From NCBI RefSeq assembly GCF_020097155.1, contig NZ_CP083691.1:806001-870000 (forward strand): a DNA stretch of 64,000 bases, given 5' to 3'. The position numbers and the translations under genes are program-made. Source of the DNA: Micrococcus porci (lineage in GTDB: Bacteria > Actinomycetota > Actinomycetes > Actinomycetales > Micrococcaceae). Positions 26,518-53,035 of the stretch are shown piece by piece. The stretch's first letter is position 1, and each line of letters begins with the position of its first letter. Below the pieces are notes generated by a model. That model was not told the DNA's origin. It did not search any database and worked only from the letters and a program-made list of their open reading frames with translations.

Positions 26518-27561
26518 TCAGGACGCGGCCAGCATGTCCTTCACGAGCGGGATGACCTTCTCGCCGAACAGCTCCACGGAGCGGCGGTTGTACTCGTGGG
26601 GGATGGGCCCGTGCTGGACCTTGAAGTTCACCCGGGTCGCGTCGAGGTCGGCGATCCCGCGGGCGATCTTCTTGGCCACGGTCTCGGGGGATCCCACGCC
26701 CATGAGGGAGTGGCGCACCTCGTGCATCAGCCCCTCCATGCCCATGGAGCCCCAGCCGCGCTCCGCGCCGAGGCGCTTGTGGTGCTCCAGGTAGTGCGGG
26801 GCGAACTGCTCGAGGGCGGCCTCGTCGGTCTCCGCGATGTGGCCGATCATGTGGAAGCCCACCTGCGTCTCGCCCGCGTGGCCGAACTTCTCGCGCGCGT
26901 CGCGGTAGAGCTTGGCGAACGGGGCGAACCGCGCGGACGGGCCGCCGATGATCGCGAGCATCAGGGGCAGGTCGTGGCCGGCGGCGCGGATCACGGACTG
27001 CGGGGAGCCGCCGACGGCGACCCACGCCTTCAGCGGCTCGGCACCCTCCAGCGGCGGATAGAGGACCACGTCCTCCAGGTTCTGGGTGAGCTTGCCGGTC
27101 CAGGACACGGGGTTCGGCTGCTCGGCGCGCAGCTCGGCGAACAGGGCCAGCTTCTCCTCGAACAGCTCCTCGTAGTCGGAGAGCTCGTAGCCGAACAGCG
27201 GGAAGGACTCGGTGAAGGAGCCGCGGCCCACGATCGCCTCGGCGCGGCCGGAGGAGAGCGCGTCGAGGGTGGCGAAGCGCTCGTAGACGCGCACGGGGTC
27301 GTCGGAGGAGAGCACGGTGACGCCCGTGCCCAGGGTCAGCCTCTCGGTGCGGCCGGCGATGGTGGCCAGCACCATGTCCGGGGCGGAGACGGTGTAGTCG
27401 TCGCGGTGGTGCTCGCCGATGGTGATGCCGTCGACGCCCGCCTGCTCGGCGGTCTCCGCCAGCTCGACGACGTGGCGCACGCCCTGCGCGTGCGACTCCA
27501 GCTCGCCGTCCAGGGTGCTGGTGCGGTCGCCGAAGGTGTCGATGTGGAACTTCACGTCCAT
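26518..27561 (-). CDS. Luciferase-like (LLM class) flavin-dependent oxidoreductase
   Basis: The 347-residue protein has the LLM barrel features ADTAEQAGVDGITIGEHH-like (seen as AEQAGVDGITIGEHHRDD), LTLGTGVTVLSSDDPVRV, AEAIVGRGSFTESFPLFG, and WVAVGGSPQSVIRAAGHDLPL. It may use FMNH2 or F420. The long upstream extension of the frame was rejected: ATG 27561 has AGGAGAGG at good distance. It lies within the hpa cluster and diverges from an F420-reductase-like gene. A shared role with that gene is plausible, but the substrate is unknown. Confidence 0.82.
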   Translation of the reverse strand: MDVKFHIDTFGDRTSTLDGELESHAQGVRHVVELAETAEQAGVDGITIGEHHRDDYTVSAPDMVLATIAGRTERLTLGTGVTVLSSDDPVRVYERFATLDALSSGRAEAIVGRGSFTESFPLFGYELSDYEELFEEKLALFAELRAEQPNPVSWTGKLTQNLEDVVLYPPLEGAEPLKAWVAVGGSPQSVIRAAGHDLPLMLAIIGGPSARFAPFAKLYRDAREKFGHAGETQVGFHMIGHIAETDEAALEQFAPHYLEHHKRLGAERGWGSMGMEGLMHEVRHSLMGVGSPETVAKKIARGIADLDATRVNFKVQHGPIPHEYNRRSVELFGEKVIPLVKDMLAAS

Positions 27562-27670
27562 GGTGTGCTGCCTCTCCTGGCCGATGCGCGGCCGCCCGGA
27601 TGTGGGGACCGTCTCATGCGAGGCTTCCTGCATCGGGAACAACAACCAAGGGGCCGGAGTTATTTCAAAC

Positions 27671-28573
27671 ATGAATGACACCATGACCGTCGGCCTGATC
27701 GGCCTGGGCAAGCTCGGCTCGGCCATCGGACGCCTCACCGCCGAGGCCGGGCACCGGATCCTCGTCGCCGACCGCCCCGATGACCCCGTGTTCGGCCTCG
27801 TCCTGGAGAGCGTCCTCCCGGAGGCCCGCGCCGTGCCCCTGGCAGAGCTGCTCCAGGAGGCGGACGTCGTCGTCCTCGCCGTGCCCCAGCCTGCCCTGGC
27901 GGGCTTGGACCTGACGGCCGCGCGCGGCATCGTCGTGGACGCCACCAACGCGTGGGAGTACACGGACGGGCCGGACTCCGAGCACCGCATGGACGCGGAC
28001 GTGTGGGCCGCGCGCGCCCCGGGGGTGCGCGTGGTCAAGTCCCTCAACCACGCCGCCTACGCGGAGCTGCTCGCCGACGCGCGGGAGCACGGCGCCGCCG
28101 GCCGGCGCGCCCTGGCCGTGGTCGGCTCCGACGACGACGCCGTGGCCCGCGCCTCCGCCTACGTGGACTCGCTCGGCTTCGACCCGGTCCCGGGCCCCTC
28201 CGCCGCGGCCCCGCTGCTCGAGCCGGACGGGCCGGACTCCGAGCACCGCATGGACGCGGACGTGTGGGCCGCGCGCGCCCCGGGGGTGCGCGTGGTCAAG
28301 TCCCTCAACCACGCCGCCTACGCGGAGCTGCTCGCCGACGCGCGGGAGCACGGCGCCGCCGGCCGGCGCGCCCTGGCCGTGGTCGGCTCCGACGACGACG
28401 CCGTGGCCCGCGCCTCCGCCTACGTGGACTCGCTCGGCTTCGACCCGGTCCCGGGCCCCTCCGCCGCGGCCCCGCTGCTCGAGCCGGACGGGCCGGTCTT
28501 CGGCGTGCGGCTGGACGCCGACGGCATGCGGGCCGCGCTCGCCGAGGGCCTCGAGGCGGACTCCGCCCGCTGA
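27671..28573 (+). CDS. NAD(P)-binding F420-reductase-like oxidoreductase with internal tandem duplication
   Basis: The N-terminus is a Rossmann domain (VGLIGLGKLGSAIGRL, residues about 7-22) and VVVDATNAWEYTDGPDSEHR, as in NADPH-dependent F420 reductase-type proteins of about 215 residues. Here an 87-residue block (DGPDSEHRMDADVW to PSAAAPLLEP) occurs twice in a row, making 300 residues. The DNA copies at 27964-28224 and 28225-28485 look identical. The duplicated block covers most of the C-terminal domain, including the KSLNHAAYAELL helix, so folding or activity may be altered. ATG 27671 or 27683 could start it; no clear ribosome site, but an A/T-rich TTATTT lies 5 nt upstream. Confidence 0.8.
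   Translation: MNDTMTVGLIGLGKLGSAIGRLTAEAGHRILVADRPDDPVFGLVLESVLPEARAVPLAELLQEADVVVLAVPQPALAGLDLTAARGIVVDATNAWEYTDGPDSEHRMDADVWAARAPGVRVVKSLNHAAYAELLADAREHGAAGRRALAVVGSDDDAVARASAYVDSLGFDPVPGPSAAAPLLEPDGPDSEHRMDADVWAARAPGVRVVKSLNHAAYAELLADAREHGAAGRRALAVVGSDDDAVARASAYVDSLGFDPVPGPSAAAPLLEPDGPVFGVRLDADGMRAALAEGLEADSAR
27964..28485 (+). repeat. Exact 261-bp in-frame tandem duplication
   Basis: Two adjacent 261-bp copies (27964-28224 and 28225-28485) encode the same 87 residues. An 11-nt sequence, GGACGGGCCGG, starts each copy and recurs at 28486, the likely slippage or recombination point. Confidence 0.9.
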
Positions 28574-28593
28574 GCCCCCGCCTCTGCGTCCAC

Positions 28594-28652
28594 TCGTCCG
28601 ACATCGACCCTCCCGAGGCCCTGCGAGGGTCGGGAGGGTCGATGTCGGACGA
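28594..28652. terminator. Bidirectional terminator with a 23-bp perfect stem
   Basis: Arms 28594-28616 and 28630-28652 are exact inverted copies around a 13-nt loop. It lies between the convergent F420-reductase-like gene and hpaD. The outer arm begins TCGTCCGACA, related to the arm at 24558. Confidence 0.85.
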
Positions 28653-28667
28653 CTGAGCGCGCTCGGG

Positions 28668-29834
28668 TCAGAGCTGGTTCCCCAGCTTGTACTCGCCCTG
28701 CTTGTACTCGGGCATGGACTCCTCGCCCTCGTCCTCGCGGGTGTAGGAGAAGCCGTCGGCGCCGATGGTCACGGCCATCTCGGAGTCGTCGGTGCGGGCG
28801 ACCAGCGGCTGCAGGTTGCCGTCCAGGTCGAGGACGCGGGAGGCGTCGGTGTACCAGGACGGCACGACCGGGGTGCCCCACCAGTCGCGGCGCTGGTTGT
28901 CGTGCACGTCCCAGGTGACCACGGGGTTGTCCGGGTCGCCCGTGTAGTAGTCCTGGGTGTAGACCTCGACGCGGTGGCCGTCCGGGTCGCGCAGGTACAG
29001 GTAGAAGGCGTTGGAGACGCCGTGGCGGCCCGGGCCGCGCTCGATGTGGTCGGACATGCGCAGGGCGCCGAGCTTGTCGCAGATCGCCAGGATGTTGTGC
29101 TTCTCGTGGGTGGCGAAGCAGACGTGGTGCATGCGGGGGCCGTCGCCGCCGGTCATGGCGGTGTCGTGCACGGTGGGCTTGCGGCGCATCCACGCGGCGT
29201 ACACGGTGCCCTGCTCGTCCTGGATGTCCTCGGTGACGCGGAAGCCCAGGTCCTGCATGAACTTGGCGGCGCGGGGCACGTCCGGGGTGACCTGGTTGAA
29301 GTGGTCCAGGCGGACCAGGGCGCCCGGGGTGTAGAGGTCGTAGCGCCAGGCGAGGCGCTCCACGTGCTCGGTCTCGAAGAAGAACTCGTAGGGGAATCCC
29401 AGCGGGTCCTCGACGCGCACGGAGTCGCCGACGCCCTTCACGAAGCCGTCCTTGTTCCGCTCCACGCGGCAGCCGAGCTCGGTGTAGAAGGCCACGGCCT
29501 TGTCCAGGTCCTCGGGGGTGCGCACGCGGTAGGAGAATGCGGCGACGGCGGCGGTCTCGCCCTTGCGGAGGATCAGGTTGTGGTGGATGAACTCCTCCAT
29601 GGAGCGGAGGTAGACGGTCTCCTCGTCCTCCTCGGTGACCACGAGGCCGAGCACGTCCACGTAGAAGTGGCGGGACGCGGCGAGGTCGGTGACCACGAGC
29701 TCCATGGACGCGCAGCGCAGGATGTCCGGGGCCTCGGCCTTCGGCGTCGGCAGCGGGTTCGCGGGGGTGATGGGGGCCTCTTCGGTGACGAAGAAGCCGG
29801 AGGAGGTCTTCTTGCGGGACTCGAGGTTGCTCAT
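28668..29834 (-). CDS. hpaD: 3,4-dihydroxyphenylacetate (homoprotocatechuate) 2,3-dioxygenase
   Basis: This type I extradiol dioxygenase (388 residues) lines up with the Brevibacterium fuscum enzyme with a 23-residue N-terminal extension. The metal ligands fall at His178 (LDHFNQV), His237 (MHHVCF) and Glu290 (HRVEVYT). The second-sphere Asn180 and the acid-base His223 (TVHDTAM) are also kept. It opens the ring of homoprotocatechuate between carbons 2 and 3. The ATG has CAGGAGAG upstream. It has its own operator site 89 bp before the start and ends in a strong terminator, so it is probably a single-gene unit of the hpa regulon. Confidence 0.93.
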   Translation of the reverse strand: MSNLESRKKTSSGFFVTEEAPITPANPLPTPKAEAPDILRCASMELVVTDLAASRHFYVDVLGLVVTEEDEETVYLRSMEEFIHHNLILRKGETAAVAAFSYRVRTPEDLDKAVAFYTELGCRVERNKDGFVKGVGDSVRVEDPLGFPYEFFFETEHVERLAWRYDLYTPGALVRLDHFNQVTPDVPRAAKFMQDLGFRVTEDIQDEQGTVYAAWMRRKPTVHDTAMTGGDGPRMHHVCFATHEKHNILAICDKLGALRMSDHIERGPGRHGVSNAFYLYLRDPDGHRVEVYTQDYYTGDPDNPVVTWDVHDNQRRDWWGTPVVPSWYTDASRVLDLDGNLQPLVARTDDSEMAVTIGADGFSYTREDEGEESMPEYKQGEYKLGNQL

Positions 29835-37229: not shown

Positions 37230-37858
37230 GTCCACAGAAGACCGTCGGCGTGTTCGCCCTCCAGGGCGACGTGCGGGAGCACGTGCACGTGCTCGAGTCC
37301 CTCGGCGCGCGTACGCGCCCGGTGCGCCGCCCCGCGGACCTCGAGGGCCTGGACGGCATCGTGCTGCCCGGCGGCGAGTCCTCCGTGATGGACCGCCTCG
37401 CCCGGATCATGGGGCTGAAGGACCCGCTCATCGCCGCCCTCCGCGACGGCCTGCCCGCCTACGGCACGTGCGCGGGGCTGATCATGCTGGCCCGCGAGAT
37501 CCGCAACCCGGCGCCGGATCAGGGCGGTCTCGGCGTGCTGGACGTGGCCGTGCGGCGCAACGCCTTCGGCGCGCAGGTCGACTCGTTTGAGGAGGACCTG
37601 GACGTCCCCGCGGTCGCGGCGGAGCCGGTGCACGCCGTGTTCATCCGCGCCCCCGCCGTCGTCCAGGCGGGGGAGGGCGTCGAGGTCCTGGCGAGCGTGC
37701 CGGCGTCGCGCCTGTCCCTGCCCGCGGCGGACCCGGGGCTCGACGGCGACGCGCGGTTGCCCGTGGCCGTGCGGCAGGGCCACCTGCTGGCCACGGCCTT
37801 CCACCCCGAGGTGACCGGCGACTGGTCCTTCCACCGGGCGTTCCTCGCGGGGCTCTGA
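37226..37858 (+). CDS. pdxT: Pyridoxal 5'-phosphate synthase glutaminase subunit
   Basis: The 210-residue class I glutaminase has [13 protein letters not shown], the LPGGESS oxyanion loop (residues 48-53), catalytic Cys82 in YGTCAG, and the His-Glu pair in [12 protein letters not shown]. It releases ammonia from glutamine into PdxS. GTG 37226 overlaps the pdxS stop. Residues about 160-180 hold an extra Pro/Leu/Asp loop before the His-Glu pair. A second, changed copy lies at 46788. Confidence 0.95.
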
Positions 37859-39142: not shown

Positions 39143-39640
39143 GTGACTCCCGCGCTGATCTCCCTCGTGGCCGTGCTCCTGCTCCTGGTGGGGCTGGTGG
39201 GCACCGTGTACCCCGTCCTGCCCGGCTCGCTGCTCAACCTCGTGACGGCTCTCGGGTGGGCCGCGCTGCTGGGTTCCCCCGCGTCCTGGACGTTCGGCCT
39301 CATCGCGGCCGGTCTCGCCGTGGCGGGGCTGAGCGCGTCCGCGGTGCTCACCGGTCGGCGGCTGCGGCGTGAACGCGTCACCCGCGGCCCGATCCTGTGG
39401 GGGGTGGCCGGCGCCGCCGTCGGGTTCTTCGTGATCCCGGTGGCGGGGCTGTTCCTCGGCTTCGCCGTCGGCCTGTTCGCCTCCCAGTGGGCCCGCACCC
39501 GGGACGCCCGGACCGCCCTGAGCAGCTCGATCGGCGCGCTCACGGCCATGGGTGTGGGCATGCTCGTGGAGTTCTGCTGTGCCTTGGGCTCGCTGACCGC
39601 CGTGGGCGTGGGCGCCCTGGTGCACGGCGTCACCGCCTGA
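39143..39640 (+). CDS. DUF456 membrane protein (copy 1)
   Basis: The 165-residue protein has hydrophobic hairpins at about residues 4-50, 55-75, 90-120 and 135-163. The family turns LVGTVYPVLPGSLLNL and GFFVIPVAGLFLGFAVGLF are present. DUF456 proteins are small membrane proteins with Gly-zipper-like repeats and unknown role. A close paralogue lies at 52535 with the same start context. GTG 39143 was chosen because it sits 6 nt from the -10 box. Confidence 0.85.
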   Translation: MTPALISLVAVLLLLVGLVGTVYPVLPGSLLNLVTALGWAALLGSPASWTFGLIAAGLAVAGLSASAVLTGRRLRRERVTRGPILWGVAGAAVGFFVIPVAGLFLGFAVGLFASQWARTRDARTALSSSIGALTAMGVGMLVEFCCALGSLTAVGVGALVHGVTA

Positions 39641-44834: not shown

Positions 44835-45526
44835 GCGAGGCGAAGGCCGAGATCCTGCGGCGCATCCGCGAGGCGACGGCGGACGGGCCGGTCGCGGACC
44901 CGGTGCAGCGCACCTACCGGCGGACCTCCTCCCGGGACCGGGCCGAGGTGGTGGAGATGCTGCGCGATCGGCTGATCGACTACCGGGCCTCCGTGCGGGA
45001 CGAGACGGAGGAGACGGTGGCCGCGGCCATCGCCGAGCTGCTCGGCCCGGACGCCCGGTACGTGGTGCCGGCCGGTCTGGAGCCCGACTGGCTCCCCGCG
45101 GACTCGCGCGGGGCCGGCCGGGAGCGCATCACGGAGCCCGCGGTGGGTCACACGGGGGAGCGGGCCGCGGTCCGCGGCGCCCACGACGGCGAGCGCGAGC
45201 CCCTCAGCGTGGACGCGCTGAACGAGGTGGACGCGGTGGTGACGTCCTCGACGGTCTCCTGCGCGGAGACCGGGACGATCTTCCTGAGCGGCCGCCCGGA
45301 CGAGGGCCGCCGGGCGATCACCCTGGTCCCGGACCACCACGTGTGCATCGTGCCGCTGGACTCCGTGGTGGAGCTCTTCCCGGAGGCGCTGGCCCGCGTG
45401 GAGGCGACGGCGCCGATCACCATGATCTCCGGGCCCTCGGCCACGAGCGACATCGAGCTCGAGCGCGTCGAAGGCGTGCACGGGCCGCGTCGCCTGGACG
45501 TGATCCTGCTCGACCGCGCTCGCTGA
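44831..45526 (+). CDS. lutC: L-lactate oxidation subunit LutC (LUD domain)
   Basis: The 231-residue LUD-domain protein has the end block STVSCAETGTIFLSG, HVCIVPLDSVVELFPEAL and ISGPSATSDIELERVEGVHGP, all typical of LutC/YkgG. It completes the lutABC operon, which turns lactate brought in by LctP into pyruvate. Confidence 0.93.
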   Translation: MSEAKAEILRRIREATADGPVADPVQRTYRRTSSRDRAEVVEMLRDRLIDYRASVRDETEETVAAAIAELLGPDARYVVPAGLEPDWLPADSRGAGRERITEPAVGHTGERAAVRGAHDGEREPLSVDALNEVDAVVTSSTVSCAETGTIFLSGRPDEGRRAITLVPDHHVCIVPLDSVVELFPEALARVEATAPITMISGPSATSDIELERVEGVHGPRRLDVILLDRAR

Positions 45527-46787: not shown

Positions 46788-47435
46788 ATGAGAGCCGTAC
46801 AGAAGACCGTGGGCGTGTTCGCCCTGCAGGGGGACGTGCGCGAGCACGTGCACGTCCTCGAGGCGCTCGGCGCCCGCACCCGTCCCGTCCGGAGGCCGGC
46901 CGACCTGGCCGGCCTCGACGGGATCGTGCTGCCCGGCGAGGAGTCCTCCGTGATGGACCGCCTGGCCCGGATCATGGGCCTGCGGGACCCCCTCGCCGAG
47001 GCCGTCCGCGCCGGCCTGCCCGTCTACGGCACGTGCGCGGGGATGATCCTGCTCGCCGCGGGGATCGAGAACCCCGCCCCGGGCCAGGGGAGCCTCGGCG
47101 TCCTGGACGTCACGGTGCGCCGCAACGCCTTCGGCTCCCAGGCGGACTCCTTGGAGGCGGACCTGCAGGTGCCGGCCGTATCCGCGGACCCGATGCACGC
47201 GGTGCTCATCCGCGCCCCCGCGGTGGTCCGCGTGGGGGAGGGGGTCGAGGTGCTCGCCTCCGTGCCGGCCGCCCGGGCCGTCGCCGCGTCCTCCTCCACG
47301 GCCGAGACCGACGACGGCGCCCCCGCCGCCGACCTGCCCGTCGCCGTGCGCGCGGGGAACGTGAGCGCCACGAGCTTCCACCCGGAGGTCACGGGGGACT
47401 GGTCGTTCCACCGCGCGTTCCTCGCCGGTCTCTGA
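46788..47435 (+). CDS. pdxT: Second PdxT-like glutaminase with altered oxyanion loop
   Basis: The 215-residue protein is a close paralogue of PdxT at 37226. It shares the start [18 protein letters not shown] and the end [14 protein letters not shown]. Catalytic Cys83 (YGTCAG) and the FHPE pair are kept. The conserved LPGGESS loop reads LPGEESS: the second Gly (expected to form part of the oxyanion hole) is Glu51. No pdxS gene precedes it, only the 34-bp end of one. The extra loop near residues 165-190 is Ala/Ser/Thr-rich. It may be inactive, or free of PdxS control. The start has no good ribosome site. Confidence 0.82.
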   Translation: MRAVQKTVGVFALQGDVREHVHVLEALGARTRPVRRPADLAGLDGIVLPGEESSVMDRLARIMGLRDPLAEAVRAGLPVYGTCAGMILLAAGIENPAPGQGSLGVLDVTVRRNAFGSQADSLEADLQVPAVSADPMHAVLIRAPAVVRVGEGVEVLASVPAARAVAASSSTAETDDGAPAADLPVAVRAGNVSATSFHPEVTGDWSFHRAFLAGL

Positions 47436-52534: not shown

Positions 52535-53035
52535 GTGACCTTCGCGATCCTCGTCTCCCTGCTGGCCGTCCTGCTGCTGATCGTGGGCCTGGTCGGCACC
52601 GTCTACCCGGTGCTGCCGGGCTCCGTCCTCAACGCCGTGGTCTCCCTGGCCTGGGCGTGGGTCCTCGGGTCGGTTGCGTCCTGGACGTTCGGGCTGATCG
52701 CCTGCGCCTTCTCGATCGCGGGCATGAGCGCCTCCGCCGCCCTGACCGGCCGGCGGCTCGTGAAGGAGCGCATACCCCGCGGGCCGATCCTCACGGGCGT
52801 GGCGGCCGCCGTCGTCGGGTTCTTCGTGATCCCCGTGGTGGGCGTGTTCGTGGGGTTCGCCGCGGGCCTGTTCGGCGCCGAGTGGGCGCGCCGCCGCGAC
52901 GCGCGCGCGGCCCTGACCAGCTCGTGGGGTGCCCTCAAGGCCATGGGCCTGGGCATGCTCGTCGAGTTCGGCTGCGCCATGGTCGCCCTGGCCAGCGTGG
53001 GCGCCGGAGCGCTGGTCCACGTCCTCAGCCTCTGA
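52535..53035 (+). CDS. DUF456 membrane protein (copy 2)
   Basis: The 166-residue protein is a paralogue of the protein at 39143. It has the same length, the same GLVGTVYPVLPGS and VVGFFVIPVVGVFVGFAAGL turns, and the same basic loop (LTGRRLVKER against LTGRRLRRER). Four hydrophobic hairpins are predicted by eye. The start is GTG without ribosome site. Function is unknown. Confidence 0.85.
   Translation: MTFAILVSLLAVLLLIVGLVGTVYPVLPGSVLNAVVSLAWAWVLGSVASWTFGLIACAFSIAGMSASAALTGRRLVKERIPRGPILTGVAAAVVGFFVIPVVGVFVGFAAGLFGAEWARRRDARAALTSSWGALKAMGLGMLVEFGCAMVALASVGAGALVHVLSL

What the first reader, a model, noticed from the sequence alone, without database searches (positions are those of the whole stretch)
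27964..28485. Exact 261-bp in-frame tandem duplication inside an F420-reductase-like gene
Two adjacent copies appear identical at the DNA level and keep the frame, doubling 87 residues of the C-terminal domain. An 11-nt microhomology (GGACGGGCCGG) stands at all three junctions. Lack of any difference means the event is very recent, still unstable, or an assembly artefact.
Basis: seen in the sequence. Interest (0 to 1): 0.75.

Follow-up and report, generated by a model that had tools for sequence, protein, structure and literature searches.

The report
Recent tandem duplication inside one gene
A bacterial enzyme gene carries a fresh, exact, reading-frame-preserving copy of 261 of its own letters, most likely made when DNA copying slipped between two short identical stretches; this is a real but ordinary kind of mutation.

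Summary
Window 27963-28484 is two adjacent, identical 261-bp units (0 differences), followed by the first 12 bases of a third. The junction homology is 12 nt, not 11. The frame is kept: residues 99-185 are repeated as 186-272 in a 300-residue ORF. Near-identical proteins from elsewhere (P0002, P0003; 213 aa, 98 and 97% identical) and four same-genus orthologues are single-copy, so the window carries the derived form.

Best explanation: a recent short-homology tandem duplication (replication slippage or unequal sister exchange) between two 12-nt direct repeats 261 bp apart. Random breakpoints in this window give at least 12 nt of junction homology at 2e-5. Being in frame needs no selection: 49 of 69 such repeat pairs in the window, and 263 of 432 in 400 kb sampled from the genome, have spacings divisible by three; shuffling that ignores codon phase gives 70 of 190.

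An assembly artefact is unlikely but not excluded without reads. Both boundaries lie at or next to predicted loops, so a partly working enzyme is possible. "F420 reductase" is a doubtful label: the genome has no match to the CofH, CofE and CofD-equivalog models. Ordinary biology; interest is low.

The parts
27671..28573 (+). Whole gene: 300-aa ORF, PF03807 (F420_oxidored) N-terminal Rossmann domain, with doubled C-terminal segment
   Evidence: start placed by alignment with 213-aa relatives
27671..27962 (+). Unique 5' part: Rossmann NADP-binding domain, residues 1-97 and the first base of codon 98
   Evidence: residues 6-93 match PF03807
27963..28223 (+). Copy 1 of the 261-bp unit; in protein register residues 99-185
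28224..28484 (+). Copy 2 of the 261-bp unit, identical to copy 1; in protein register residues 186-272
27963..27974 (+). 12-nt direct repeat at the left edge; the same 12-mer stands at this site in the single-copy orthologue of G007
28224..28235 (+). 12-nt repeat at the novel junction between the copies
28485..28496 (+). 12-nt repeat at the right edge; G007 has CGGACGGCGCCG at this site, the same first 7 bases and 9 of 12 in all
28497..28573 (+). Unique 3' tail: conserved Phe-Gly (277-278) and last helix, present once only

Best explanation
A strain-level mutation, in what is most likely a Micrococcus. The single-copy gene (213 codons) held two 12-nt direct repeats (both encoding Asp-Gly-Pro in the same frame) 261 bp apart. 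During replication the nascent strand, or a broken end, re-paired one repeat upstream and copied the interval again, giving an exact head-to-tail duplication with the short repeat at both edges and at the junction. Because the repeats lie in the same codon phase, the frame is kept. SHOWN: exact copies, 12-nt homology at all three places, single-copy state in relatives, in-phase bias of the available repeats. INFERRED: the slippage or sister-exchange mechanism; recency; that the protein either still folds, with one copy completing the enzyme and the other looped out, or is impaired; and that the identical tandem is itself unstable and tends to revert to single copy.
For: Exact units and 12-nt junction homology. 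Random breakpoints in the window (486,467 draws, spacing 50-1000, duplication region left out) give junction homology of at least 12 at 2.1e-5, median 1. Single-copy forms: P0002 and P0003 are 213 aa, 98 and 97% identical, and 4 of 10 other same-genus genomes carry a single-copy orthologue at 64-69%; at the 4 loci compared it lies among the same hpa genes, two of the loci being cut short by the fetched length. G007, single-copy, already has the identical left 12-mer and 9 of 12 bases of the right one. 49 of 69 repeat pairs of at least 12 nt in the window and 263 of 432 in 400 kb of the genome have spacing divisible by 3; shuffling within 300-bp blocks gives 70 of 190, phase-by-phase shuffling 140 of 228. 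Passages of PMC2884548 attribute variable segments flanked by repeats below 30 bp to replication slippage / short-homology illegitimate recombination.
Against: No reads, PCR or second isolate of the strain could be examined. The 12-nt substrate is not special: about 70 other such pairs in the window have not duplicated, so why this one did is unexplained. No DNA of the 213-aa near-identical alleles was read, so the immediate ancestor's 12-mers are inferred from their proteins (DGP at both sites) and from G007, whose right site differs at 3 of 12 bases. Zero differences bounds copy divergence only to about 1.1% (rule of three, my arithmetic).
Confidence: 0.86

Rival explanations
1. Assembly or library artefact: the strain has one copy and the doubled segment was made by mis-joining or a chimeric template.
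For: The copies are perfectly identical; the relatives that I aligned are single-copy. Reads were not available. The sister genome G007, also one contig, shows two exact tandem repeats whose nature is unsettled.
Against: The genome is one contig of 2,648,900 bases, 99.99% complete. Assemblers usually collapse such repeats rather than create them (general knowledge). The joint sits exactly on a 12-nt direct repeat (2e-5 by chance). No other exact tandem with a unit over 27 bp turned up in 400 kb sampled from the genome.
Confidence: 0.08
2. An older duplication, kept identical by recombination between the copies, or kept by selection because the longer protein is useful.
For: The frame is kept and there are no stops; both edges lie at or next to predicted loops. 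Recombination between tandem repeats is frequent: a passage of PMC2884548 gives about 1e-4 of cells for 1-kb tandem repeats.
Against: No doubled form is listed among 105 homologues, lengths 166-265, although candidates up to 1.75 times the query length were allowed; but only the 7997 candidates sharing most words were scored, and the window's own 300-aa form is not listed either. Near-identical alleles are single-copy. Both copies carry Pro (181 and 268) where P0002 and P0003 have Ser, as expected if the duplication came after that difference arose. In-frame status is expected without selection.
Confidence: 0.06

Closest known systems
Short-homology-dependent tandem duplication (replication slippage / illegitimate recombination in bacteria; passages of PMC2884548)
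   Same: Exact adjacent copies with a short direct repeat, below about 30 bp, at both edges and the joint; single-copy ancestor
   Different: Nothing in kind; only the host gene and size are particular
In-frame tandem insertions in bacterial coding genes, such as the blaKPC variants (3-84 bp; passages of PMC12593533)
   Same: In-frame intragenic tandem duplication that keeps the ORF
   Different: Here 261 bp, a large part of a domain, with no known selected phenotype
In-frame structural variants of pe/ppe genes in Mycobacterium tuberculosis (17 of 25 in frame; passages of PMC12817950)
   Same: Actinobacterial genes with an excess of in-frame changes that the authors assign to mechanism rather than selection
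   Different: pe/ppe genes are repetitive (general knowledge); here an ordinary enzyme gene, and the in-phase excess of repeats is traced to codon-phase composition
PF03807 NADP oxidoreductases (structures 4huj, 3dtt, 5n2i; STEAP oxidoreductase domains)
   Same: Rossmann domain and overall fold
   Different: 87-residue doubled segment; host genome lacks matches to three F420 synthesis models

Membership tests
Short-homology tandem duplication | Two or more adjacent, essentially identical copies | tested here: met
   261/261 identical
Short-homology tandem duplication | Short direct repeat at both edges and at the joint | tested here: met
   12-mer at 27963, 28224, 28485; 2e-5 by chance
Short-homology tandem duplication | Single-copy ancestral state in close relatives | tested here: met
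   P0002, P0003; 4 same-genus orthologues
Short-homology tandem duplication | Independence from RecA; rate of gain and loss | not testable with these tools
   needs a bench assay
NADPH-dependent F420 reductase | PF03807 domain above its curated cut-off | tested here: met
   41.5 bits against cut-off 21.6
NADPH-dependent F420 reductase | Host makes F420 (CofH/FbiC, CofE/FbiB, CofD/FbiA) | tested here: not met
   no match for TIGR03551, PF01996 or TIGR01819 in the genome; its one PF01933 hit is YvcK-type, TIGR01826. Control: PF01996 passes its cut-off in 18 of the 59 relatives searched (own genome included), but in none of the 11 of this genus. TIGR03551 is a weaker test: over its cut-off in only 3 of the 59.
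NADPH-dependent F420 reductase | Curated NCBIfam equivalog match | tested here: inconclusive
   none of the 25 rows shown (of 28) reaches its cut-off
NADPH-dependent F420 reductase | F420-binding residues | not tested
   no residue-level comparison with an F420-bound structure was made
Phase-variable tandem repeat (VNTR) | Copy number varies between cells or strains with a phenotype | not testable with these tools
   one genome per species held; near-identical proteins from elsewhere are single-copy

The most novel reading that the evidence does not exclude
The 261-bp tandem acts as a reversible switch: the doubled gene makes a 300-residue protein of lower or altered activity, and frequent slippage back to one copy restores the 213-residue enzyme within the homoprotocatechuate degradation cluster, so that a population carries both states.
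Probability: 0.04. Interest if true: 0.4.

Novelty: new member of a known kind. Interest (0 to 1): 0.13.

Why it matters
By itself it is one more slippage duplication, useful as a clean example with single-copy alleles known. The more general point is that in this GC-rich genome about 61% (263 of 432, in 400 kb sampled) of direct-repeat pairs of at least 12 nt are spaced by a multiple of three, so short-homology duplications and deletions should be in frame nearly twice as often as one in three without any selection. 'It kept the frame' is therefore weak evidence of function in such genomes.

Tried and rejected
Mobile-element origin: the units are plain coding sequence. A search for inverted repeats in 27500-28800 gave 10 pairs; none has its arms at the two edges of the duplication. 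The strongest (28586-28616 / 28630-28660, 31 nt, 90%) lies beyond the stop codon and looks like a terminator hairpin. Each unit holds the 12-nt palindrome CGCCGGCCGGCG (28096-28107, 28357-28368), which could help a polymerase to stall; untested. The five neighbouring genes that I named are metabolic; IS families were not searched for as such.

Chance: rejected. Selection to explain the frame: rejected as unnecessary after the phase-preserving shuffle reproduced the in-frame share.

Other copies in the own genome: the DNA query found the gene itself and 8 short matches of 40-70 bases at 77-85%. The 12-mer also occurs once elsewhere in the window, at 44880; taken as chance. Plasmid collection: no match.

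Sister genome G007: two exact tandem repeats, 314 and 937 bp, with 2 and 1 nt of junction homology, in what looks by eye like IS3-type transposase genes (ORFs; no family search made). Of another type than the finding.

Structure: the 300-aa model puts copy 1 into the enzyme core (residues 1-183 with nearly the same elements as the 213-aa model), leaves copy 2 at block pLDDT 46-77 and docks the last helix (283-299). This is not evidence that copy 2 is disordered: the alignment rows were placed on copy 1 (invariant columns at 126, 145 and so on), so copy 2 had little alignment support.

Literature: Micrococcus luteus with tandem duplication gave 17 papers, 10 listed, none about this gene by title; 'intragenic tandem duplication' with bacteria and in-frame gave 0; three broader searches served for mechanism. 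This covers the held library only. Of papers, only passages of PMC12817950, PMC2884548 and PMC12593533 were seen.

Full report
Observation. The window contains an exact head-to-tail duplication. TRF reports 27963-28496, period 261, 100% matches and no indels; the repeat finder gives 27963-28223 and 28224-28484 at 100% identity. A script confirms that the units are identical and that the match at shift 261 runs 273 bases and does not extend leftwards. The junction word is therefore 12 nt, CGGACGGGCCGG, at 27963, 28224 and 28485. The ORF 27671-28573 gives 300 residues, with 99-185 repeated as 186-272.

Single-copy state. The protein search listed 105 homologues of 166-265 residues, none of the doubled length; only the 7997 candidates sharing most words were scored, and the window's own 300-residue form is not listed. 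P0002 differs from the window protein at four places (25, 87, 181/268, 291) and P0003 at six, so they are alleles from elsewhere and not a collapsed assembly of this strain. Both copies in the window carry Pro (181 and 268) where P0002 and P0003 have Ser, as expected if the duplication came after that difference arose. P0002 is listed without a source, a mark the tool uses for proteins of the window itself; the four differences show that it is not identical to this one. In the genus, 4 of 10 other genomes (G002, G006, G007, G009) have an orthologue at 64-69% identity, single-copy in each. Two of these appear to be named in another collection, by contigs of the same length: Micrococcus lacusdianchii and a Micrococcus sp. 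MAG; that the window is a Micrococcus is my inference from these. The other six have weaker, partial or more distant matches.

Setting. The gene stands between genes matching HpaI, HpaH and an LLM-class monooxygenase on one side and HpaD and HpaE on the other, all on the opposite strand. HpaD (429.5 bits, cut-off 321.4) and HpaE (653.3, cut-off 638.35) pass their cut-offs; HpaI (284.2, cut-off 368.8), HpaH (345.2, cut-off 351.5) and the LLM match (421, cut-off 462.25) fall below theirs. The order is kept in the four loci compared (L082, L039, L040, L013), as far as the fetched lengths reach, except that the LLM gene was not found in L082 (G007).

How it most likely arose. Random breakpoints in the window (486,467 draws) have a median junction homology of 1 base, and only 2.1e-5 of them reach 12. 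So the joint was most likely made by pairing of the two 12-nt repeats, not by joining at random places. The single-copy orthologue of G007 has the identical 12-mer at the left site and 9 of 12 bases, including the first 7, at the right, so the left repeat is probably older than the duplication. Replication slippage or sister-strand exchange is the standard explanation: a passage of PMC2884548 says that repeats below 30 bp are under the threshold for RecA-dependent recombination in E. coli and points to slippage. The mechanism is inferred, not shown. About 70 other pairs of this kind in the window have not duplicated, so this pair is not special.

Why in frame. Only one spacing in three keeps the frame if spacings are random. 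I counted exact direct-repeat pairs of at least 12 nt spaced 50-1000 bp: in the window without the duplication 49 of 69 are multiples of three, in 400 kb sampled from the genome 263 of 432, and in 380 kb of G007 (L074 dropped because of its own tandem repeats) 369 of 580. Shuffling in 300-bp blocks gives 70 of 190; shuffling each phase separately gives 140 of 228. The share is thus reproduced by the base composition of codon positions (in this gene third positions are 95-100% GC). Passages of PMC12817950 describe an in-frame excess (17 of 25) in pe/ppe genes of M. tuberculosis and also assign it to mechanism rather than selection.

Recency and background. There are 0 differences in 261 bp, which bounds divergence at about 1.1% (rule of three). 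By contrast, copy 1 has 190 of 258 aligned bases identical with G007. In the window this is the only exact tandem repeat found by the scan (unit 4-3000 bp); 400 kb of the same genome had one of period 27 and one of period 4-5. Exchange between the copies could keep older copies identical, so recency is likely but not proven.

Effect on the protein. In the 213-aa model (mean pLDDT 90.6) residues 99-101 lie at the end of a short helix and in the loop after it, and 186-188 in a long loop. The duplication therefore inserts 87 residues between elements. In the 300-aa model (mean pLDDT 81.4) copy 1 completes the core, copy 2 is poorly defined and the last helix docks; the alignment used favours this outcome, so the opposite arrangement is as possible. 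The Phe-Gly and last helix occur once, after copy 2. Whether the protein works is open.

What the enzyme is. PF03807 passes its cut-off. The best fold matches of the 213-aa model are 4huj, STEAP oxidoreductase domains and 3dtt; the Thermobifida fusca F420:NADPH oxidoreductase 5n2i is in the list for the 300-aa model. The genome has no match for CofH, CofE or the CofD equivalog; its one PF01933 protein is of the YvcK type. As a control, PF01996 (CofE) passes its cut-off in 18 of 59 relatives (own genome included) but in none of the 11 genomes of this genus. The CofH model is the weaker test: it passes its cut-off in only 3 of the 59 and gives weak matches in many others, 8 of the 10 other same-genus genomes among them. 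A true F420 reductase is therefore doubtful; an NADP-linked reductase of another acceptor is more likely (inference).

Verdict. A real, probably recent, ordinary slippage duplication. An artefact is possible at about 8%. Interest is low; the side result on in-frame bias is the more general lesson.

Noticed in passing
G007 sample, L074 6106-8606: Two exact tandem repeats (unit 314 and 937 bp, junction homology 2 and 1 nt) in what looks by eye like a nested IS3-type transposase array; either real element rearrangements or an assembly fault.
   Followed up: partly
whole genome G000 and 10 other same-genus genomes: No PF01996 (CofE) match in any of the 11, and no CofH or CofD-equivalog match in G000, although the window holds a PF03807 gene: F420 labels are probably wrong here.
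   Followed up: partly
window 26518-27561: LLM-class monooxygenase gene (TIGR03858, 421 bits, below its cut-off of 462.25) next to the duplicated gene, kept in L039, L040 and L013 but not found in L082 (G007).
   Followed up: no
window 28586-28660: Strong inverted repeat (31-nt arms, 90% complementary, 13 nt between) between the stop codon of the gene and the convergent HpaD gene; looks like a terminator serving both strands.
   Followed up: no
window 37234-37533 / 46799-47098 and 39159-39458 / 52554-52853: Two pairs of long dispersed direct repeats, 82% and 73% identical over 300 nt, probably paralogous genes.
   Followed up: no
own sample, L043-L062: Direct-repeat pairs of at least 12 nt prefer spacings divisible by three (263 of 432), reproduced by codon-phase composition.
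   Followed up: yes
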